Assembly: GCF_024832785.1 (NCBI RefSeq)
Contig: NZ_CP116615.1
Span: forward strand, 1 to 64,000
DNA: 64,000 bases
DNA from: Fontisphaera persica
GTDB lineage: Bacteria > Verrucomicrobiota > Verrucomicrobiia > Limisphaerales > Fontisphaeraceae
Reading direction: 5' to 3'
The notes under the pieces are model-generated. The model saw only the letters and a list, made by a program, of their open reading frames with translations, had not been told where the DNA came from and did no database searches. Shown here one piece after another: positions 2,783 to 13,828 of this stretch (positions are counted from its first letter, which is position 1; every line of letters starts with the position of its first letter). Made by a program: the position numbers and the translations under genes.

Positions 2783-3640
2783 TCAAGCACCCAGCAAGAG
2801 GTGCGGCTTTTCCGCCAGTGACAGAAAGCGTCCCCCCTCCCATTTGGCCTGTGGCTGGCCGTCGCGCCAGGCGCGCAGGCGGTAGAGGGTGGCGAAGGTG
2901 AAGGCGGGGGCGGCGCCGCCCTGACCACCCACCACTTCGCCGCCGCGGCGCACGTTGTCCATCATCCAGGCGGGCAGGGAGAGGTGATAGGGATTGCGCT
3001 GCACTTCGCCCACATGGAAGGTGAGCGCGGTGATTAGGTCGCCCAAATCTTGCGCCGAGATTTCCACCATCAGGTTGGGGGCGGCCATGGGCGCCCAATA
3101 CTCGGTTTCCACCAGGTCGCAGACAAAACCGGGAAGGGTGCGCAGGGCATCCATGACCAGATGATGCACGCCAATATGGGTGCTGTTCCAGTCGGCATCG
3201 TGCGGGAAGAAAATGGCCCGGGGTTGCTCGCGTTGCAGAATTTGCGCAATGACCGTCACGCACTGCTGCCAATGTTGCGGCTCCTGGCTGCGGGTTTTGG
3301 GATTGATTTTTTCCAGGCCGGTGGGGGCGGTTTGAATCAACTCAAAGCCGATATGTTGGCAGCAATTTTTTAATTCCTCCCAGCGGGCGGCCTGCCGGGC
3401 CTTGTTGCTGCCCTGCGTCACGGCCACATTGATGATACGCCAACCTGATTCACGCATCAGCCGCAAGGCCAGCCCGCCGATGATGACCTCGTCGTCCGGG
3501 TGGGGCGAAAAAATCAGCGCTTTGGGGGCATCGGGCGCCAGCGCGGGGCGGGGCAGGGGGGCGAAACCGCCCAGGGGATAATGTTTGGCTTCGGTCAACA
3601 GCCGGGCCAGACCGGCAACTAATTGATGATAGGGAGTCAT
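2783..3640 (-). CDS. PIG-L/LmbE family deacetylase
   Basis: A 285-residue protein of the PIG-L/LmbE superfamily, zinc enzymes that remove acetyl groups from N-acetylglucosaminyl compounds. Seen directly: the metal motif FSPHPDDEVIIGG (about 44-56) and the downstream HDADWNSTHIGVHHL with the third ligand and catalytic histidines. There is no signal peptide, so it is probably cytoplasmic. It starts 30 bp after the ROK-type kinase on the same strand, so the two are likely co-transcribed. A ROK kinase next to a LmbE deacetylase suggests amino-sugar or glucosaminide metabolism, but the substrate cannot be read from sequence. Confidence 0.88.
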   Translation of the reverse strand: MTPYHQLVAGLARLLTEAKHYPLGGFAPLPRPALAPDAPKALIFSPHPDDEVIIGGLALRLMRESGWRIINVAVTQGSNKARQAARWEELKNCCQHIGFELIQTAPTGLEKINPKTRSQEPQHWQQCVTVIAQILQREQPRAIFFPHDADWNSTHIGVHHLVMDALRTLPGFVCDLVETEYWAPMAAPNLMVEISAQDLGDLITALTFHVGEVQRNPYHLSLPAWMMDNVRRGGEVVGGQGGAAPAFTFATLYRLRAWRDGQPQAKWEGGRFLSLAEKPHLLLGA

Positions 3641-5240: not shown

Positions 5241-7232
5241 ATGCTGACCCAACGGATTACGGCCCTGGCTTATGGTGTTTTGCTGGTGCTGGTGATTTCG
5301 CGAGGCGGGCAAGAAGGAGGTTATTATTCCTGCAGTACCATTTACCGCGAGCAGATGGAGGCTTTCCTGGCCGGGCGGCTGGCTTTGAGCGATAACGTTC
5401 TGGCGGCACGCCATGATTTAACCTGGTCAGAGGGTGGGGTGCATCAAGTATGGGGGTTGGGCGTGCCGGTGTGGCGGCTGCCTTGGGAATTGGCGGCGCG
5501 GGCGGCGGGCTTTGCGGCCTTTCCCGATTTGTTCGCCGTGGGCCTTTTTGGCGCCCTTGCCGCCTATGCCGTGCTGAGCGCTTTTTGGGGGAGAACGGAG
5601 GAAAATTGGGACACTGCGATGCCTTTTTTGGCCAGTAGCGCGGCCATGAGCGGCTCCACCCTCATTTTGCTGATGTTTCCGGCCCTTTTTGGCCTGCTAT
5701 CCGCCCGTTTTGATATTTATGAGGAGGCGGTGGTGTATGAGTATTTTTACGCCTTGATTTTGCTGGCCGTGCTGGCGCGGCTGGCGCAACGACCGGGGAA
5801 TCAGTGGTGGTACGCGCTGTGCCTGCTGGCGGGCTTGGGCGGTTTCATACGTCCACCGCTGGTGTTCTATGGCGGGGCAGCGGTCATGGTGGGCGCAGGG
5901 GTGTGGTGGTGGGGGCGGCGGTGTGCTTTGCCGGGGAATGCTGTGAAGACGGAGGCAGCTTCCCCTGGCATTGCTCCAGCGCCACAGGCGGTTGCGCCAG
6001 CGGCGGCATCCCCGGCAAATCGCGGCGTCGAATGCCGCAACGGCTGGCGCGCGCTGGCGCTGGGACTGGTGTTGTTTGGACTGGGCGGGGCGTTGTTGTT
6101 TTTTACCAACCTGGCGCGGTTCGGCAGCGGGTTTGAATTCGGCCACCGGCTTAATTTGCAGGATCTTTACGGCTCAATGTACGCGACGCGGTTTGATCAC
6201 CCGTACCAACAGGAGCCGGTGTGGTCCGCCAGCCGGGAAATGCTGGGGCTGCTGTTTTTTACCCGCGATTTGAACGGCAGTGATTTTTACCGAAAGAAAT
6301 TCTTCCCTGGCCAATCGCCCACCGTGCGATGGCGGGAGATGTACCTGACGGCGTATAACCCGTGGTATTGGCCGTGGCTGGCTGGCGGATTGGTGGCGAT
6401 GGCCTTTGCGGGCATGGCCTGGTGGCGTCGGTACCGGCAGGGGGCCAAAGTTCCGGCGCATGCACGGGTCATCGCGGCGCTGGGCGCGTGGGGCGCACTG
6501 GCCGGCGTCATGTTGTTTGGCTTTTACCTGCGCAACAGTGTGATCTCGTCACGTTACCTGCTGGATTTCATGCCAGCCTTCGGGGCCTTGATAGTGGCCG
6601 GCTGGCTGGGGTGGTGCGCGTGGGTGGGGGTGCGCCGGGCAGGCAGCCTGTTGCTGCTACTTTCCTGGGTCGTATTATGTGGTTGGACATTCTGGCAAAT
6701 CCAATCCCTGCGCAGCACTTATGGCCCGCCACGGCTATTGACGTGGCCCGAGGTGCAGCAGCGGATGGACCACCAACAGGTTGAGGCCGCCCGAATACGT
6801 CCCGCACTGCCCTCTCAATATGATGCCAACACGCGGTTTGAAGACTACCTGATACCCTATAATGGTGGGGGTTGGGACTTGAAGACCGGCGCGGTACGGT
6901 GCCTGATTATCTTGTTCATGGAAGACCCGCAATACTTGGAACTGACGGTGCGGCAGGATCACGAGGATTGGGAGAAAGCACCGCCGCAGCACGTGCGCGC
7001 AAAAATCGGGCTGGAGTTGCTGGAGCGGGAAAGCATTGCCAAGGGCGAGGATGGCTGGGTGGTGCGGTTTCGCGGCCCGCAGAAGCGACGGTATCAGCGG
7101 GGGCTGCAGGTGGGATTTGTCGTATTTGTGCCGAATACACAATTGGCCGAACCCATGACGAGATGGCGGCTAATTAAGGCCAAATGGCGTAATGAACAGG
7201 GCCGTTCAGAAGGTGTAGAAATGGGAAAATGA
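5241..7232 (+). CDS. polytopic membrane protein, possible GT-C type glycosyltransferase
   Basis: A 663-residue protein with about ten hydrophobic segments over residues 5-510 and a soluble C-terminal domain of about 150 residues. The layout is that of GT-C/PMT-like glycosyltransferases: an early extracytoplasmic loop after TM1 containing an acidic patch, many spans, then a periplasmic tail. No DxD/ExD signature could be assigned confidently, so function stays open. The C-terminal domain ends with a basic GPQKRRYQRG segment. ATG at 5241 with no strong SD. It diverges from the ROK gene and is followed by an AT-rich spacer holding an 80-bp repeat. The other large membrane protein of the window (11184-13004) is a possible functional analogue. 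Confidence 0.6.
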   Translation: MLTQRITALAYGVLLVLVISRGGQEGGYYSCSTIYREQMEAFLAGRLALSDNVLAARHDLTWSEGGVHQVWGLGVPVWRLPWELAARAAGFAAFPDLFAVGLFGALAAYAVLSAFWGRTEENWDTAMPFLASSAAMSGSTLILLMFPALFGLLSARFDIYEEAVVYEYFYALILLAVLARLAQRPGNQWWYALCLLAGLGGFIRPPLVFYGGAAVMVGAGVWWWGRRCALPGNAVKTEAASPGIAPAPQAVAPAAASPANRGVECRNGWRALALGLVLFGLGGALLFFTNLARFGSGFEFGHRLNLQDLYGSMYATRFDHPYQQEPVWSASREMLGLLFFTRDLNGSDFYRKKFFPGQSPTVRWREMYLTAYNPWYWPWLAGGLVAMAFAGMAWWRRYRQGAKVPAHARVIAALGAWGALAGVMLFGFYLRNSVISSRYLLDFMPAFGALIVAGWLGWCAWVGVRRAGSLLLLLSWVVLCGWTFWQIQSLRSTYGPPRLLTWPEVQQRMDHQQVEAARIRPALPSQYDANTRFEDYLIPYNGGGWDLKTGAVRCLIILFMEDPQYLELTVRQDHEDWEKAPPQHVRAKIGLELLERESIAKGEDGWVVRFRGPQKRRYQRGLQVGFVVFVPNTQLAEPMTRWRLIKAKWRNEQGRSEGVEMGK

Positions 7233-7530: not shown

Positions 7531-8679
7531 ATGGGGGCGATGTCCATGGAGAGAAACCTGATTGGCATGATGCTGGCGCTGGCAGTCATGAGTTGGTGGG
7601 CGGGCTTGGGCATGGGAGCTGAGGGGGAAGACCGGCCAGTTTTTCAAACGCATTATGCCGTCACGGGACATTGGACAGTCTCATACGTGATTAGCAACCG
7701 ACATACCGTTGACAGCTATTGTTATCCCTTTACCTTGCAACGGCTGGGGAATCAATGGCGCATGAAAGTTGCCTCTGGAACCAACGGGTTTAAAACTTAT
7801 TATGATGTTGGTTGTGATGGAACCAACATCTATATGGTGCACCATGATCTTCTCAGCACCAACATACCCAAGGACAGGAATTCAGCGCTAGTGTATCCCG
7901 GAATAATATGCACGGAACTCAGTGGCGAAATGGTATGGTTTGCGTTCTGTCGTGACACGGTGCCCACGAACGATAAGCCAACAATCCCAAAGCCCAACAT
8001 GTATAGCAGCATTAACCACTATGCGCATATTTATCTTCACGGAAGCGAGGTTAAATACGTTGGAGATGAGGTGATTGAAAATGGGTGGTTTGTCGTGAAC
8101 AAGGAACGCTTGGACAAGGCGCTTCTGTCACCTTATTTGCTGACAAAGCAAAAGATTCTTGGGGGCGGATATCCCCATCCGCCGGGCACTACCAATCTCG
8201 TTTATCAGGCGATTTTTCGGAGAGGTCGAGATGGCATGTTTTATCAACATCACTTCAAGGCGACAGTGGTTGGGTCAAGTAAACTCCATCCAGAAATGGA
8301 AGGCTTTGCCCTGCCCGATACCAACAAGATATCTCATTTTTCCTTCGAGTATGTGTATGTTGACTTGAATGAAAAGGAATTTAGCTGCTACCCGGTGACG
8401 GGCCGGATGCTGGATATCATTGATTATCGGCTGTGGGACAAGGAAAAACAGATGTTCACGCACCTGTACAAAAGCACGAATTTCCTGGGGACAAATGAGC
8501 TGGATAAGGCGGCCTATGTGCTGGATATGGCCAAGCTTAGGGAGGAGAAGAAACGCGGAAAAAGAGTGATGGCCTCTAAACTGCCTTTGGTACTGACCTT
8601 GATTGCGGTGTTGTTGGGGCCACTGGGGTGGTGGCTCCTTGCAGTCAAAAAACAAAGGAAAAACGCAGAAAAAACCTAG
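7531..8679 (+). CDS. exported protein of unknown function with C-terminal membrane anchor
   Basis: A 382-residue protein, family not recognised. It has an N-terminal hydrophobic signal (about 9-29, ending near GMGAEGEDR), an extracytoplasmic body of about 310 residues, and a C-terminal hydrophobic segment (LVLTLIAVLLGPLGWWLLAV, about 351-370) followed by the basic tail KKQRKNAEKT. It therefore looks like a signal peptide plus stop-transfer anchor. The body is rich in Tyr, Asn and Thr with few conserved-looking motifs. Base composition is visibly lower in GC than the flanking genes. ATGs at 7531, 7540 and 7546 are possible; 7531 has an ACGAGG 7 nt upstream. The Cys-rich gene follows 16 bp downstream, so they are probably one transcript. 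A shorter related-looking reading frame lies at 10910. Confidence 0.7.
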   Translation: MGAMSMERNLIGMMLALAVMSWWAGLGMGAEGEDRPVFQTHYAVTGHWTVSYVISNRHTVDSYCYPFTLQRLGNQWRMKVASGTNGFKTYYDVGCDGTNIYMVHHDLLSTNIPKDRNSALVYPGIICTELSGEMVWFAFCRDTVPTNDKPTIPKPNMYSSINHYAHIYLHGSEVKYVGDEVIENGWFVVNKERLDKALLSPYLLTKQKILGGGYPHPPGTTNLVYQAIFRRGRDGMFYQHHFKATVVGSSKLHPEMEGFALPDTNKISHFSFEYVYVDLNEKEFSCYPVTGRMLDIIDYRLWDKEKQMFTHLYKSTNFLGTNELDKAAYVLDMAKLREEKKRGKRVMASKLPLVLTLIAVLLGPLGWWLLAVKKQRKNAEKT

Positions 8680-8695
8680 AGAGGAGAGAAACACT

Positions 8696-9106
8696 ATGAA
8701 GAAAATATGGTTAATGATTGTGTTGGTGCTGGCTAGCGGCATAACTGTATCAACAGCGGCTAGATTTTTAAGGTGCCAATTATACCAAGATGCCATCGTG
8801 GCAATGAATTGCGGCTCTCCATTTAGTGCCTGTCCAGGGAACTGCCTCATTGATAGACATACCATCAATCCAGCGCCTCCGCCGCCTTTCGGGTTGCCGC
8901 CCGCTGGATTACCAGAAGGTATAGTTGGAGGAATGTGCACTATGGGAGCAATTTATGATACATGCAATTCAATTATGCCTAACTGGCTTGTGACCCGTAC
9001 ACGATGGAGCGTTCGGTGCCTGACAACGGCAAGTTCATGCCAATGCGATCCAAATAATGCAATCGGCCAAGTTTTTTCCACGCCGTTGGTTGCTGATTGC
9101 TTTTGA
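8696..9106 (+). CDS. small exported cysteine-rich protein
   Basis: A 136-residue protein. It has a clear signal peptide (MKKIWLMIVLVLASG..., likely cleaved after STAA near residue 22) and then about 114 residues with ten cysteines, including a CQC pair, and a proline-rich stretch (NPAPPPPFGLPPAG) in the middle. An even number of cysteines in a small exported protein suggests a disulfide-stabilised fold. An SD (GAGGAG) lies about 10 nt upstream of the ATG at 8696. It sits between the membrane-anchored exported protein and a MauE-like gene. In methylamine utilisation MauE is needed for the Cys-rich small subunit MauA, so this protein may be the client of the downstream membrane protein. No homology to MauA is claimed. 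Confidence 0.72.
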   Translation: MKKIWLMIVLVLASGITVSTAARFLRCQLYQDAIVAMNCGSPFSACPGNCLIDRHTINPAPPPPFGLPPAGLPEGIVGGMCTMGAIYDTCNSIMPNWLVTRTRWSVRCLTTASSCQCDPNNAIGQVFSTPLVADCF

Positions 9107-9324
9107 TGTATCGAAAGGGTGAGCGGCGGTTGTTTGTAGGAATCACGGCACACCCAGCGTGGTTTAGATGCATCTGCACTTGTTGGGATGAGATTTCCGC
9201 AAAGGGGGGGCGGCCTTTGCTGGGACGCAGGTAAAATCCAAGCCGCTGTGAGCGGAAATAAACCTTTGGCAGAGCGACCTGAAAATCGAACACGAAATTA
9301 GTGTGGGGTGATATCCTTCTTCAT

Positions 9325-9786
9325 ATGCGAATTGAGGACCTTTTCCTTAAATCTGCGGCCGTGATTTTGGCGGTTACGGCAATGTGCAAGCTGATAAGTG
9401 TTGCAGGCGAGGCGAAAGTGATGGCCTTGGCGGACCCGGTATTTCGTTTTATCAGCCTGCGGCAGTTGCTGCTGGTTACGGCACTTGCGGAAGGGGCAGT
9501 GGCCTGGTATGTGTGGAAAGGCAAAGAATCCGCCGCCAAGAGTTTCCTAGTATTGTGGCTGTGCGGTATGTTCATTGGCTATCGGCTTGGCCTGTGGTTG
9601 ATGAACTACAAGGGCTGCTCCTGTGTGGGCACGGTGACGGAGTGGCTGCCGGTGCCACCGGCGACAGTGGACTGGGTCATGAAAGTCGTTCTAGCCTATC
9701 TGACGGCTGGTTCCGCCGTCTGTTTCTGGAAGACATTTCTCAAGGGTGATACAAAACAGACCGTTGGGCACCAGCCTGCCGGGTAA
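9325..9786 (+). CDS. MauE/DoxX-like four-helix membrane protein
   Basis: A 153-residue protein with four hydrophobic segments (about 5-24, 39-58, 67-88, 110-132). Between the third and fourth lies NYKGCSCVGTV, resembling the conserved C-x-C-[FV]-G loop of MauE/DoxX-type proteins, which are linked to periplasmic thiol oxidation. ATG at 9325 (an in-frame GTG lies at 9301). It is 218 bp after the Cys-rich gene and 5 bp before the GT2 gene, so it may be co-transcribed with either side. Likely role by family: electron transfer for disulfide formation in exported proteins. That its partner is the upstream 10-Cys protein is inference. Confidence 0.68.
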   Translation: MRIEDLFLKSAAVILAVTAMCKLISVAGEAKVMALADPVFRFISLRQLLLVTALAEGAVAWYVWKGKESAAKSFLVLWLCGMFIGYRLGLWLMNYKGCSCVGTVTEWLPVPPATVDWVMKVVLAYLTAGSAVCFWKTFLKGDTKQTVGHQPAG

Positions 9787-9791
9787 CTTTT

Positions 9792-10586
9792 GTGGAGCGC
9801 CATTCGTATTCGCCCGCTGACCGGGACAAGGGCTGTCGGGTCCCCGGCTCATCCCCTCCCTCTCTCTCCATTGTCATTCCGGTGTACAATGAAGCCCGGA
9901 GTGTGGAATTGGTGTTGGAGCGGGTACTGGCGCAGTATTTTGTGGCGGAGGTGGTGGCGGTGGATGATGGGAGCACGGATGGGAGTTGGGGGGTGATGCG
10001 CGGGTGGGAGGCGAGGGATGGGCGGGTGCGGCTGGCGCGGCACGAGCGCAACCGCGGGAAGGGGGCGGCGGTGCGGACGGGTTTGGCGCTGGCCACGGCG
10101 CCAGTGGTGGTGGTGCAGGACGCTGACCTGGAATATGACCCGGCGGACTTGGGGCCGATGCTGGAGTTGATTTTGAGCGGCAAGGCGGACGTGGTGTATG
10201 GGAGCCGGTATGCCGATGGGCGGCGGGGGGTGGGGCCGTTGTGGCATACGTTGGGGAACAAGGCGCTGACGCTGTTTTCCAACTTGTGCACTGGGCTGTG
10301 GCTGAGCGACGAGGCGACGTGTTACAAGATGTTCCGGCGGGAGTTGGTGCCGCGGCTGGAGCTGCGGGAGGAAGGGTTTGGATTTTGCCCGGAGTTCACG
10401 GCCAAGGTGAGCCGGTTGGGGTTGCGGGTGATGGAGGTGCCGATAACGTATCATGGGCGGAGCCGGGCGGAGGGGAAGAAAATCCGGCTGCGACATGGCG
10501 TGGAAGCCCTTTGGTGTCTGGTGAAGTACAGCCGTTGGCGGCCTACGGCGGGGGCCATGGGCGGGGCGCGCTCGGCAACTGAATGA
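9792..10586 (+). CDS. GT2 glycosyltransferase (polyprenyl-phosphate sugar synthase-like)
   Basis: A 264-residue GT-A fold enzyme. It has the N-terminal SIVIPVYNE, nucleotide-binding VVAVDDGSTDGSW, the DxD-type motif VVQDADLEYDP (about residues 113-123), then VVYGSRYADGRRG and the acceptor-side region GKKIRLRHGVEAL. The pattern matches the dolichyl/undecaprenyl-phosphate mannose or glucose synthase group (DPM1-like), which makes lipid-linked sugars for GT-C transferases. There are no C-terminal membrane helices. GTG start at 9792, 5 bp after the MauE-like stop. Two large membrane proteins nearby (5241-7232, 11184-13004) could use its product, which is inference. Confidence 0.86.
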   Translation: MERHSYSPADRDKGCRVPGSSPPSLSIVIPVYNEARSVELVLERVLAQYFVAEVVAVDDGSTDGSWGVMRGWEARDGRVRLARHERNRGKGAAVRTGLALATAPVVVVQDADLEYDPADLGPMLELILSGKADVVYGSRYADGRRGVGPLWHTLGNKALTLFSNLCTGLWLSDEATCYKMFRRELVPRLELREEGFGFCPEFTAKVSRLGLRVMEVPITYHGRSRAEGKKIRLRHGVEALWCLVKYSRWRPTAGAMGGARSATE

Positions 10587-10909: not shown

Positions 10910-11353
10910 ATGCGATGCTTAGCCGCTAGTGGGAATTTGAAAGCCAGCAGATTGGCGGCTGGAGTATGCATATTAATGTTCGTAACCCTGTTGGAGGTTA
11001 ATTCAGCCATTTTCCAAGTTGGAGGACTGGCCATTCGGCGTGGTTACGATCCTGAGGATATGGTTTATAAGGAAGCACAAATCAGCTTTCGTGCCATAGT
11101 TTCCAATGAATGCTGGCGGATTGATATCATAAATAAAAGTGGCAGAGGCTCTTCAATTTCAACGGACGGCAGATACTTTTATTATGCATTATCTCCATAT
11201 CATAAGCGCGGGCAGGCCAGCTCATGGGCGCGCGGAGGGTCATGGGGGTGGCGGTCAAGTAAAACCATGGTTGGCGGTGGTGCTTTTGCTGGCGCTGGCA
11301 CTGGTGGGGGGCGGGGTGATGCTGGGGCGGGGATTTGGGACCGCGCAGCATGA
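10910..11353 (+). pseudogene. 5' remnant of an exported-protein gene
   Basis: The frame starts at an ATG with a good SD and encodes a hydrophobic signal segment (about 13-33) and about 65 residues of extracytoplasmic sequence. A segment N-x-C-W-R-I...ISTDGRYFYYAL resembles in spacing N-Q-W-R-M...VGCDGTNIYMV of the exported protein at 7531, so a distant paralogue is possible. After about residue 100 (near 11215) the sequence turns into low-complexity Gly/Ala/Arg that is the out-of-frame shadow of the next gene, and the two frames overlap by 170 bp. The simplest reading is a gene truncated by a deletion or recombination joining it to the membrane-protein gene at 11184. Confidence 0.5.
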
Positions 11354-13004
11354 CGGGAAGTTTCACACTATCTGGAGCGAGAATTTTTCCCGGCAATTAT
11401 GGGGAGGCGAGGTGTATCCCCGATGGTTGATGGATTTGAATGGGGGGTTGGGGAGTCCGGCTTTTTATTATTATCCGCCGGTGCCGTTTTACGCGACGAG
11501 CTTGTTGCGCCCGGTGTTTGGGGAGGAGGGGGCGAGCGGGCGGATGCTGGGGGCGGGGGCGGTGGTGGCGTTGTGCTTGAGCGGGTTGATGGCCTGGGGA
11601 TGGCTGCGGCGGCGGGTGAGCGAGTGGGCAGCGCTGGCGGGGGCCGGGGCCTACGTGCTCGCGCCGTATCATCTGGCTGCGGATTTATATGTGCGGGGGG
11701 CGTACGCCGAGTTGTGGGCTTTTGCGTGGTTGCCGCTGGTACTGGCCGGAGTGGATTGCATGGCAGACGGGCGGGGGCGGGCGCGGGGGCTGGTCTTGCT
11801 GGCGTGCGGGTATGGGTTATTGGTAGCCACGCATCTTCCCACGACGCTGCTGTTTTCGCCGGTGCCGTTGGTCTATGCCTGGTGTGTGGGTGGGCGGGGG
11901 GCATGCTGGAGGTTGGCGGCGTGGACGATGGCGGGGCTGGGGTGGGGTGCGGGGTTGGCGGCGGTGTATGTGTTGCCCGCCATGACGTTGCAGGAATACA
12001 TATCCATGAGCGCGCTCACCAACTCGCCGAATTTGCAATATGACCGGAACTTTTTGCTGACGGCGCTGCATCCCGAGGGTGAGGCGTTTCGGGCGGCGTT
12101 GTTTTGGCAGGTGTTGGGGACGTTTGCGGTGGGGGCGTGGGGCTTCGTGATGGCGGGGCGGATGGAAGACTTGGGGCTGCGGCGTCGGGTGGTGTGGGGC
12201 GTGGTCGTGCTATACGCGACATTGTTCCTGATGCTGCCGCTGAGCGAGCCGGTGTGGAGGCATGTGCCGCGGCTGAAACTGGTGCAATTCCCCTGGCGAG
12301 CCACAGCCATACTGACCTTGGCGGCGTGCTGGCTGATGGCGGCCGGGTTGCACCAGTGGCGGCAGGGCGGCGGGTGGTGGAAAGGGGTGATGTTGGGTGG
12401 GATGGTGGTGCTGCTGGCGGGGTGGGGATGGATGGATTATCAGGCGATTCGGCACTTTGCGCGGCATCACCAAAGCCCGCCTGCCGAGTGGCTCACGCGG
12501 CAGGAGGACGCCACAGAATATTTGCCGGCATGGGTGGCGGAGCCGTTGGGGCAGATATTGGAGGGGCTGGAGGTCAACCGGGAGCCGGAGCGAGTGAAGC
12601 ATTACACCGATGGCACCCTGCCGTTGTTGCCGCGGATGGGGCTGGTCCAGGACCAGGCGCGTCTGGCGGTGGTGTTTGAGCAAGGGCGCGGGCGGGTGGT
12701 AATCCGGGAATGGCATCCGCGGCGTGTGCAGATTCTGGTGGAGGCGGGGGAGCCAGTCACGTTGCAGGTCAGCCAGTTTTATTTTCCGGGATGGAAGGCC
12801 TGGCGCGGGGTATCGCCGGTGGAGGTGCGGCCGGCGTCGTCGAGCGGGTTGATGCAGGTGGACCTGCCCGCCGGGCATCACACCCTGAGGCTGGCCCGGA
12901 GACTTTTGCCGGTGGAATGGGTGGGGTGGGGGGTGACGTTGGTTTCGGGATTGGCAGCGGTGTTGGTTTGGATAAACTCACGGCGCACACAGCCACGAAA
13001 ATGA
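11184..13004 (+). CDS. polytopic membrane protein, YfhO/PTPS-related GT-C-like
   Basis: About 606 residues with a first span at VVLLLALALVGGGVML and roughly ten further hydrophobic segments, then a soluble C-terminal region. After TM1 comes an extracytoplasmic loop with HDGKFHTIWSENFSRQL and YPRWLMDLNGGLGSPAF, typical of the 6-pyruvoyl-tetrahydropterin synthase-related (PF10131-like) and YfhO-like membrane families. The tail FYFPGWKAW...VDLPAGHHTLRL also resembles YfhO C-termini. Substrate unknown; lipid-linked glycan transfer is the usual guess. The start is uncertain because the N-terminal 30 residues overlap the truncated gene before it. The stop overlaps the next start as ATGA. Confidence 0.65.
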   Translation: MHYLHIISAGRPAHGRAEGHGGGGQVKPWLAVVLLLALALVGGGVMLGRGFGTAQHDGKFHTIWSENFSRQLWGGEVYPRWLMDLNGGLGSPAFYYYPPVPFYATSLLRPVFGEEGASGRMLGAGAVVALCLSGLMAWGWLRRRVSEWAALAGAGAYVLAPYHLAADLYVRGAYAELWAFAWLPLVLAGVDCMADGRGRARGLVLLACGYGLLVATHLPTTLLFSPVPLVYAWCVGGRGACWRLAAWTMAGLGWGAGLAAVYVLPAMTLQEYISMSALTNSPNLQYDRNFLLTALHPEGEAFRAALFWQVLGTFAVGAWGFVMAGRMEDLGLRRRVVWGVVVLYATLFLMLPLSEPVWRHVPRLKLVQFPWRATAILTLAACWLMAAGLHQWRQGGGWWKGVMLGGMVVLLAGWGWMDYQAIRHFARHHQSPPAEWLTRQEDATEYLPAWVAEPLGQILEGLEVNREPERVKHYTDGTLPLLPRMGLVQDQARLAVVFEQGRGRVVIREWHPRRVQILVEAGEPVTLQVSQFYFPGWKAWRGVSPVEVRPASSSGLMQVDLPAGHHTLRLARRLLPVEWVGWGVTLVSGLAAVLVWINSRRTQPRK

Positions 13005-13828
13005 AACGCATGGCAAAGAGGCCAACCAAGGGGCGGGCGTTCACCCTGATTGAGCTGATGGTGGTGGTGTTGATTATTGCCGTGCTGGTGGCGTTGTTGC
13101 TGCCGGCGCTGGCGGCGGCCAAGCAGCGGACGCGGACTGTCCAATGTGTCAATAATCACCGGTCGCTGGTGTTGGTCTGGCAGTTGTATTGCGACGATTA
13201 CCATGGCCGGCTGCCATGGACGGTGGACGACGGCGACGGGCTGCCATTTACCAACTGGGTGGCGGGCCACTTGCGCAATCCGCTGGAGGCGACCAACGCG
13301 GCCTTGTTGGTGGACCCCAAGCGTTCGCTGTTGGCGCCGTATGTCACCCATCCGGGCCTGTATAAATGCCCCGCCGATCCGTCCCCCCTGGTGCGCAGCG
13401 TGAGCATGAACAACCGGCTGAACCCGGTGCGCTTTCTCAAGCCGGTGCTGGTCATTGGGGGATATGGCACCAATTTCATGGTTTATCGGCAGCAGAGCGA
13501 CATCCGGGAGCCGTCGCGCATCTTTGTGTTTTTGGATGAACGCTACGACAGCATCAACGAGGGCAATTTTGCGGTGGATTTGAGCAACACCGGCACGTTC
13601 GACGGGCATGGGGTGCCCACGCCGTATTGGTGGCTGGACACGCCGTCCGGGTACCATCACCAAAGTGTGAACCTGTCTTTTGTGGACGGCCGGGTGGAGA
13701 CGCACCGGTGGCAGGAGCGCACGACGCTGGGGCCGATTGGGGTGACCGGTTTCCGCCGCACCAGCAGCACCGACCGGGACATATCGTGGCTGCAATTCCA
13801 CACGGCCGAGCCGGTGGCGGGGCGTTGA
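13001..13828 (+). CDS. pilin-like protein with prepilin N-terminal methylation motif and H-X9-DG tail
   Basis: A 275-residue protein. The basic leader MKRMAKRPTKGRA precedes FTLIELMVVVLIIAVLVALL, a type III prepilin/pseudopilin signal with Glu5. Residue -1 is Ala rather than Gly. The large extracytoplasmic domain ends with GYHH...FVDGRVE, the H-X9-DG pattern of the very numerous pilin-like proteins of Planctomycetes and Verrucomicrobia. It may be a surface or pseudopilus component; function in these paralogues is mostly unknown. The start codon overlaps the preceding stop (ATGA at 13001-13004), implying translational coupling. This puts the pilin-like protein with the membrane glycosyltransferase-like gene. 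Confidence 0.85.
   Translation: MKRMAKRPTKGRAFTLIELMVVVLIIAVLVALLLPALAAAKQRTRTVQCVNNHRSLVLVWQLYCDDYHGRLPWTVDDGDGLPFTNWVAGHLRNPLEATNAALLVDPKRSLLAPYVTHPGLYKCPADPSPLVRSVSMNNRLNPVRFLKPVLVIGGYGTNFMVYRQQSDIREPSRIFVFLDERYDSINEGNFAVDLSNTGTFDGHGVPTPYWWLDTPSGYHHQSVNLSFVDGRVETHRWQERTTLGPIGVTGFRRTSSTDRDISWLQFHTAEPVAGR

What the first reader, a model, noticed from the sequence alone, without database searches (positions are those of the whole stretch)
7531..9786. Exported protein, 10-cysteine exported protein and MauE-like thiol-oxidation membrane protein in one cassette
A small secreted protein with ten cysteines sits directly upstream of a four-span protein with a C-x-C-V-G loop of MauE type and downstream of a membrane-anchored exported protein. 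In methylamine utilisation, MauE is needed to form the disulfides of the small Cys-rich MauA subunit. The sizes here (about 114 mature residues, even Cys number, dedicated MauE-like neighbour) recall that, but no MauA similarity was seen. It may be a dedicated oxidative-folding system for an undescribed surface or redox protein. Lower GC suggests accessory origin.
Basis: partly seen in the sequence, partly recalled or inferred. Interest (0 to 1): 0.65.

Follow-up and report, generated by a model that had tools for sequence, protein, structure and literature searches.

The report
Cysteine-rich secreted protein maturation cassette
A recurring bacterial gene set pairs a small secreted protein, whose cysteines are conserved, with a membrane protein of a disulfide-forming family and a membrane-tethered LolA-shaped protein, and it looks like a dedicated folding line for a fast-changing surface protein.

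Summary
The trio (E, exported and C-terminally anchored; Cys, 10 cysteines; Mau, MauE-like with CSCVG) occurs six times in this genome; in three copies Mau and E are one fused protein. E hits occur in 87 of 293 genomes of the order (probably Limisphaerales) but in only 1 besides the window's own of 387 phylum genomes. Of 58 E units with full flanks, 35 have a small exported protein with at least 8 cysteines nearby (controls 4 of 56), 37 a CxC MauE and 30 both. More distant E relatives often stand alone: 6 of 20 newly sampled regions had a Cys partner. The Cys proteins form one very diverged family with eight near-invariant cysteines; an optional pair (C46, C115) tends to come and go together. 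Membrane glycosyltransferases are frequent neighbours, and a sister cassette lies in an 8-kb tract nearly identical in a second species. Best reading: dedicated oxidative folding of a variable, possibly glycosylated surface protein. Redox activity is untested.

The parts
5241..7232 (+). Polytopic membrane protein, possibly a GT-C-type glycosyltransferase; neighbour of the cassette
   Evidence: 8 hydrophobic spans; no Pfam match; polytopic neighbours are frequent at cassettes
7531..8679 (+). E: exported protein with predicted LolA fold and a C-terminal membrane anchor
   Evidence: AlphaFold model and PDB comparison, repeated on relative L072; six copies in the genome
8696..9106 (+). Cys: small exported protein with 10 cysteines (8 core plus optional pair C46, C115); the presumed product
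9325..9786 (+). Mau: MauE-like membrane protein with CSCVG; the presumed thiol oxidase
   Evidence: paralogues match PF07291 above cut-off; CxC kept in all 24 cassette copies aligned
9792..10586 (+). Glycosyltransferase family 2, polyprenyl-phosphate-sugar-synthase-like (that finer label is recalled); begins 5 bases after the stop of Mau
   Evidence: PF00535 8.7e-36
10952..11191 (+). Probable remnant of the N-terminal part of a second E gene
   Evidence: A7 profile 17.6 bits, E 7.6e-4 over residues 15-94 of the 10910 frame; below inclusion with the other E profile (E 0.036)
11139..13004 (+). Large membrane protein, weakly YfhO / PTPS-related-like (frame start; true start probably later)
   Evidence: below the Pfam cut-offs
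13001..13828 (+). Prepilin-like protein (N_methyl above cut-off; DUF1559 below cut-off)
   Evidence: PF07963 25.0 bits against 21.2

Best explanation
The cassette is a dedicated oxidative-folding line for one exported cysteine-rich protein. Cys leaves the cytoplasm through its signal peptide as a reduced chain. E, a LolA-fold half-barrel tethered to the inner membrane by its C-terminal span, catches the unfolded or hydrophobic chain and holds it next to Mau. Mau, a membrane protein whose CxC loop faces the periplasm (my reading of the charges around its spans), passes oxidising equivalents from the membrane and makes the four core disulfides plus accessory ones. The folded protein is then possibly glycosylated by neighbouring GT-C enzymes from polyprenyl-phosphate sugars and shown at the cell surface, where it diversifies quickly. 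Shown by computation: recurrence of the trio, fusion of Mau with E, the predicted fold of E, conserved and co-appearing cysteines, glycosyltransferase enrichment, and a sister island shared with another species. Inferred: electron flow, holding by E, glycosylation, surface display.
For: Six copies in the genome, Mau fused to E in three, and one frame matching both profiles in 10 further loci outside the genus, 2 of them without the C.C.G motif. Of 58 E units with full flanks, 35 have a Cys neighbour, 37 a CxC MauE and 30 both; outside the own genus 29, 30 and 24 of 50. Controls by the uncorrected rule: 1 of 32 and 3 of 24. One Cys family: 39 of 54 members found by profiles built without their BLAST relatives, 45 of 54 above all 50 shuffles of equal composition. 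Optional C46 and C115 co-occur: 17 both, 3 and 7 alone, 27 neither, Fisher 4.6e-6, 36 pairs tested. LolA fold: Foldseek 2.8e-5, VIA Z 11.1 at rmsd 4.2 over 155 residues. E, Mau and Cys distances correlate over 40 units. The genome also has a general VKOR homologue, so the cassette copies are extra.
Against: 23 of 58 full E units lack a Cys partner by the corrected rule and 21 of 58 lack a CxC MauE. The more distant E relatives often stand alone: of 20 newly sampled regions 6 had a Cys partner and 4 a CxCxG MauE. The window Mau itself has no Pfam MauE match. E has no profile similarity to LolA of the same order, and LolA is known as a lipoprotein carrier, not a folding helper (recalled). 18 of 54 Cys proteins have an odd number of cysteines in the mature part, so not all can be paired within one chain. 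The Cys alignment was made by a program that favours matching cysteines; only the shuffle and leave-out tests guard against that, and 9 of 54 members do not beat every shuffle. After thinning, the E-Cys distance correlation is weak (r 0.11, p 0.04).
Confidence: 0.55

Rival explanations
1. E and Mau serve the glycolipid side. The LolA-fold cavity of E carries a polyprenyl-linked sugar or another lipid to the neighbouring GT-C enzymes, Mau gates it by thiol redox, and Cys is the acceptor protein or a regulator.
For: LolA-superfamily cavities bind lipids (recalled). PIG-V, Wzy_C, GT87, PMT_2 and GtrA neighbours recur; polytopic ORFs are enriched; 18 of 39 PIG-V hits in 26 genomes lie within 6 kb of an E hit.
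Against: 26 of 45 loci with E and Mau have no strongly polytopic ORF within 3 kb, and 11 of the 26 genomes searched have no PIG-V match; the CxC is kept in all 24 cassette Mau copies aligned, which a lipid role alone does not explain.
Confidence: 0.17
2. Cys proteins are secreted weapons or signals (bacteriocin-like). Mau and E mature them, and rapid divergence reflects an arms race.
For: Low identity between copies while GtrA and PIG-V flanks stay alike; a sister island shared nearly unchanged with another species; MauE beside precursors with at least 8 cysteines was proposed for candidate RiPP clusters in Streptomyces (passages read, PMC7794033).
Against: No exporter as a regular neighbour: one ABC ATPase and one MacB-like domain among 107 neighbours, each in one member. 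No immunity gene was recognised, but none was searched for and PADLOC was not scanned. Products of 90-179 aa with signal-peptide-like N-termini are long for RiPPs.
Confidence: 0.12
3. Cys is a metal- or electron-carrying redox protein and Mau keeps its thiols reduced or inserts a cofactor with help from E.
For: Ten or more cysteines; CxC and CxxC pairs occur in many family members; MauE belongs to a cofactor-protein maturation cluster (passage).
Against: In the window copy most cysteines are spread out; optional cysteines that appear together at distant positions fit disulfides better; no thioredoxin family matches two or more of 107 neighbours, one thioredoxin-domain ORF being seen near locus L057.
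Confidence: 0.1
4. The genes are only passengers of variable surface-glycan loci and do not work together.
For: Low GC and glycosyltransferase surroundings; many distant E relatives stand alone.
Against: Gene fusion, constant CxC, correlated distances and rates above control.
Confidence: 0.06

Closest known systems
MauE of the methylamine-utilisation cluster (Pfam PF07291)
   Same: Membrane protein of the same Pfam family (through paralogues), CxC loop, gene near a small multi-cysteine exported protein
   Different: No sequence match of Cys to methylamine dehydrogenase chains, no MauD-like thioredoxin as a regular partner; instead paired with, or fused to, a LolA-fold protein
MauE-containing candidate RiPP clusters of Streptomyces (decRiPPter, PMC7794033; passages read)
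   Same: MauE homologue with a nearby precursor of at least 8 cysteines, proposed from sequence alone
   Different: The passages read mention no LolA-like partner; our products are proteins of about 90-179 aa with signal-peptide-like N-termini in another phylum
LolA / LolB / RseB / VioE fold superfamily
   Same: Predicted half-barrel fold of E
   Different: C-terminal membrane anchor, fusion to MauE, no profile similarity to LolA; the genome has its own ordinary LolA
VKOR-type and DsbB-type thiol oxidases (recalled)
   Same: Presumed job: feeding disulfides into exported proteins from the membrane
   Different: The VKOR profile found another gene in this genome, not the cassette copies; DsbB was not searched

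Membership tests
MauE (PF07291) | Profile match above the curated cut-off | tested here: inconclusive
   Window copy: no MauE hit. Paralogues B, C, E: 29.0, 27.2, 29.9 bits against 27; D 11.2 bits; F none. The window copy is 23-32% identical to the five paralogues
MauE (PF07291) | Conserved CxC in the loop between two spans (recalled as the family's mark) | tested here: met
   CxC in all 24 cassette copies aligned; invariant in the 18-row alignment
MauE (PF07291) | Needed for disulfide formation in a partner protein | not testable with these tools
   Needs knock-out and mass spectrometry
Methylamine-utilisation (mau) system | MauA-like small subunit beside MauE | tested here: not met
   A profile of the six Cys copies matched three PDB sequences at E up to 1, none of them methylamine dehydrogenase
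Methylamine-utilisation (mau) system | MauD-like thioredoxin-fold partner as a regular neighbour | tested here: not met
   No thioredoxin family matches two or more of 107 neighbours; of 86 families 25 were shown. One thioredoxin-domain ORF near locus L057
LolA superfamily (fold) | Half-barrel fold | tested here: met
   Prediction only: VIA Z 8.9 for the window model (mean pLDDT 56) and 11.1 for a relative (66); the 19 best rows of the relative's list are LolA, LolB, LolA-superfamily, lipoprotein-sorting or DUF1329 entries
LolA lipoprotein carrier (PF03548) | Profile similarity to LolA | tested here: not met
   No LolA hit in Pfam; hhalign against eight LolA of the same order, probability 0.1
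RiPP biosynthetic cluster | Leader peptide and modifying enzyme other than MauE | tested here: inconclusive
   N-termini look like signal peptides; no RiPP enzyme among the 25 of 86 neighbour families shown; no RiPP-specific search was made

The most novel reading that the evidence does not exclude
A lineage-specific, horizontally moving secretion-coupled 'glyco-redox assembly line': a MauE oxidase and a tethered LolA-fold holder, sometimes one protein, fold a hypervariable disulfide-rich protein and hand it to adjacent GT-C glycosyltransferases, possibly as part of a pilin-like surface fibre. This would be the first case known to me of a LolA fold working as the substrate-holding half of a thiol oxidase.
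Probability: 0.3. Interest if true: 0.78.

Novelty: new variant of a known kind. Interest (0 to 1): 0.64.

Why it matters
The role of MauE in disulfide formation is still, in the words of PMC7794033, 'speculated' (passage). A system in which the putative oxidase is fused to its putative holder, with the substrate gene next door and repeated six times in one genome, makes that mechanism directly testable by co-expression and disulfide mapping. It would also widen the jobs of the LolA fold beyond lipoprotein and lipid carriage, and identify a diversifying class of disulfide-rich exported proteins in Verrucomicrobiota.

Tried and rejected
MauA kinship of Cys: no match. LolA kinship by profile: none, so LolA is claimed for the predicted fold only. 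Relatives of E in plasmids, of Mau in phages, and of the MauE pattern in viral contigs: none. A structure of Cys was not attempted, because the six-row alignment that I could hand in misplaced the window row in my judgement. A DNA-pattern scan with a spacing error found nothing and was repeated correctly.

Counts corrected: one search gave 48, 48 and 42 of 69, but its rule had kept 11 units near contig ends only because they had both partners and dropped 19 others; I recounted on the 58 units with full flanks (37, 37, 31) and then removed two Cys calls that were a zinc-ribbon tail or a spurious frame (L063, L090), giving 35, 37, 30. Two of the units without a partner have a 7-cysteine one (L048, L063), and L090 has a Cys-family frame that my signal rule missed. 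The controls (1 of 32, 3 of 24) were counted by the uncorrected rule. For the neighbour tally I gave 107 of the 164 ORFs listed, the window's own genome among them. Seven automatic Cys calls were set aside as bad, doubtful or duplicate. The polytopic control (1 of 60) is from the window's genome only. The PIG-V count used E positions; the list is cut, so 18 of 39 is a lower bound, and the 26 genomes were chosen for having E hits. The prepilin link is suggestive only: 38 N_methyl hits in the genome, one near each of the three cassette loci.

Literature searches for a description of the cassette; sought the organism. Listings were cut (25 of 119, 20 of 45). Only PMC7794033 looked relevant; passages of it were read, nothing else beyond listings. 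Subscription papers and preprints are not in that library, so 'not in print' cannot be claimed.

Full report
WHAT IS THERE. The window holds, on the + strand, an exported protein with a C-terminal membrane anchor (E, 7531-8679), a small exported protein with ten cysteines (Cys, 8696-9106) and a MauE-like membrane protein (Mau, 9325-9786). E and Cys are 16 bases apart; Mau is followed after 5 bases by a family-2 glycosyltransferase. Their GC is 0.499 against 0.612 for the window.

THE UNIT IS REPEATED. Searching the same genome (G000, 4.73 Mb) with Mau found five clear further copies and one weak match; E found two and Cys none convincing. Reading the places gave six full units: A (window), B to E in an array at about 2.277-2.294 Mb, and F at 1.63 Mb. 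In B, E and F, Mau and E form one protein of 529-543 aa; in C, E is fused to a GtrA protein; in A and D Mau and E are separate. All six have a small exported protein with 10 to 13 cysteines beside E. Three paralogous Mau parts exceed Pfam's MauE cut-off; those of D and F do not.

HOW FAR IT REACHES. A six-row E profile hit 38 of 293 genomes of the order at E 0.001; a 30-row profile hit 87 of 293 at E 1e-5, but 2 of 387 genomes sampled over the phylum, one being the window's own and the other of the same class. The order is probably Limisphaerales: a 'same order' contig of 288,723 bases has the same length as a record named Limisphaera sp.. A DNA pattern for the MauE motif scanned over named genomes gave 12 loci, titled Verrucomicrobia, Verrucomicrobiia, Limisphaera, Limisphaerales or just 'bacterium'.

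CO-OCCURRENCE. Loci came from the E hits and the own genome. My first count (48 Cys, 48 MauE, 42 both of 69) was biased, because it kept 11 units near contig ends that had both partners while dropping 19 others. Recounted on the 58 units with 1.2 kb on both sides, 35 have a small exported ORF with at least 8 cysteines on the same strand (37 before removing two false calls), 37 a CxC MauE and 30 both; outside the own genus 29, 30 and 24 of 50. Control ORFs: 1 of 32 in the same loci and 3 of 24 elsewhere in the genome. Two units without a partner by this rule have a 7-cysteine one. Against this, 20 regions from genomes found only by the wider profile gave 6 with a Cys partner and 4 with a CxCxG MauE, one more having a MauE without the motif: the distant E relatives are often alone. 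Over 40 units, distances correlate for E-Mau (r 0.36), Mau-Cys (0.28) and E-Cys (0.22), permutation p 0.0002-0.0012; after thinning to 36 units 0.23, 0.24 and 0.11 (p 0.04 for the last). This does not correct for species kinship.

THE CYS FAMILY. For each of 54 Cys proteins a profile was built without its BLAST relatives: 39 of 54 were still found at E below 0.01, and 45 of 54 scored above all 50 shuffles of the same composition; the window member scored 32.0 bits (E 6.4e-8) against at most 11.7 for shuffles. Eight columns hold cysteine in 91-100% of rows, at window C27, C39, C50, C81, C90, C108, C117 and C135. C46 and C115 are optional and co-occur (17 both, 3 and 7 alone, 27 neither; Fisher 4.6e-6, 36 pairs tested); a second optional pair of columns behaves likewise (1.8e-4). 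This is what disulfide pairs would leave. Yet 18 of 54 have an odd count in the mature part.

THE FOLD OF E. The window E model has mean pLDDT 56; Foldseek's best PDB hits were mostly LolA, LolB and VioE, none below E 0.001, and VIA gave LolA at Z 8.9, rmsd 4.3 over 153 residues. A relative (L072) gave pLDDT 66, Foldseek 2.8e-5 to LolA and VIA Z 11.1, rmsd 4.2 over 155 residues. No profile similarity to LolA of the same order was seen, and Pfam found no LolA family. The 30-row alignment shows no invariant or nearly invariant cysteine in E, so E is unlikely to be a thiol oxidoreductase itself.

SURROUNDINGS. Of 107 neighbouring ORFs (of 164 listed), 8 match PIG-V mannosyltransferase, 8 N_methyl prepilin, 6 GT2, 6 Wzy_C, 4 GtrA, 3 GT87 and 2 PMT_2 (single cases). 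ORFs with at least 7 spans make up 22 of 110 neighbours against 1 of 60 controls from the own genome, and 19 of 45 loci have one within 3 kb. In 26 genomes chosen for their E hits, at least 18 of 39 PIG-V hits lie within 6 kb of an E hit, among them all four of the window's genome, one of which is below the cut-off. The genome also has a VKOR homologue and an ordinary LolA elsewhere.

MOVEMENT AND DIVERGENCE. In the array, GtrA copies are 72-82% and PIG-V copies 77-97% identical, whereas between the six units Mau is 22-66%, E 20-46% and Cys 22-44% identical, at lower GC. Unit F, with a prepilin, GT87, GT2 and another membrane protein, lies in a tract of about 8.0 kb that is 99.8-100% identical to a species of the same genus whose flanking DNA is only 67-92% identical. 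Recent transfer is the simplest reading; a chimeric draft assembly is possible. At the window's own locus, that species has E in two broken, overlapping frames (45-50% identical) and another E, a 7-cysteine Cys and Mau (63%).

MECHANISM. The fused Mau-E proteins, the invariant CxC and the paired cysteines of the neighbour point to disulfide formation on Cys, with E as a tethered holder. This is inference: I know of no redox assay. The main rival is that E carries a glycolipid for the GT-C neighbours. The closest precedents are MauE/MauA and the MauE-containing candidate RiPP clusters of Streptomyces, whose precursors hold at least 8 cysteines (passages of PMC7794033). The LolA-fold partner, the fusion and the repeated, moving unit are what is new here, as far as the searches can tell.

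Noticed in passing
L016 2674-10673 (G000 1624.7-1632.7 kb) and L047 1095-9093: About 8 kb nearly identical (99.8-100% in 500-base blocks) between two species of one genus, holding unit F with glycosyltransferases and a prepilin; flanks 67-92% identical. Recent transfer or a chimeric draft.
   Followed up: partly
L014 and L015 (G000 2.276-2.294 Mb): Array of four units in which GtrA and PIG-V flanks are alike but Mau, E and Cys differ strongly.
   Followed up: partly
G000 2289731-2289865 and the starts of the GtrA genes in L014: Runs of a 15-base in-frame repeat (AAKMS) at the N-terminus of GtrA, differing in copy number between units; might vary expression or length.
   Followed up: no
L053 6881-8242 and L056 11236-12597: A MauE-like domain without the CxC, fused to a zinc ribbon and a prepilin-like segment (FTLVELLVVI).
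   Followed up: no
L063 4481-5269, L064 2714-3388: MauE-like proteins without CxC ending in zinc ribbons, a few hundred bases upstream of E.
   Followed up: no
L066 6172-10186 and L119 1832-6835: Tandem E genes (three and four frames) without a Mau or same-strand Cys call nearby.
   Followed up: no
L075 6953-7869: Two adjacent 15-cysteine exported proteins beside a MauE gene, apparently another cysteine-rich type.
   Followed up: no
window 2786-3640: PIG-L-family de-N-acetylase near the cassette.
   Followed up: no
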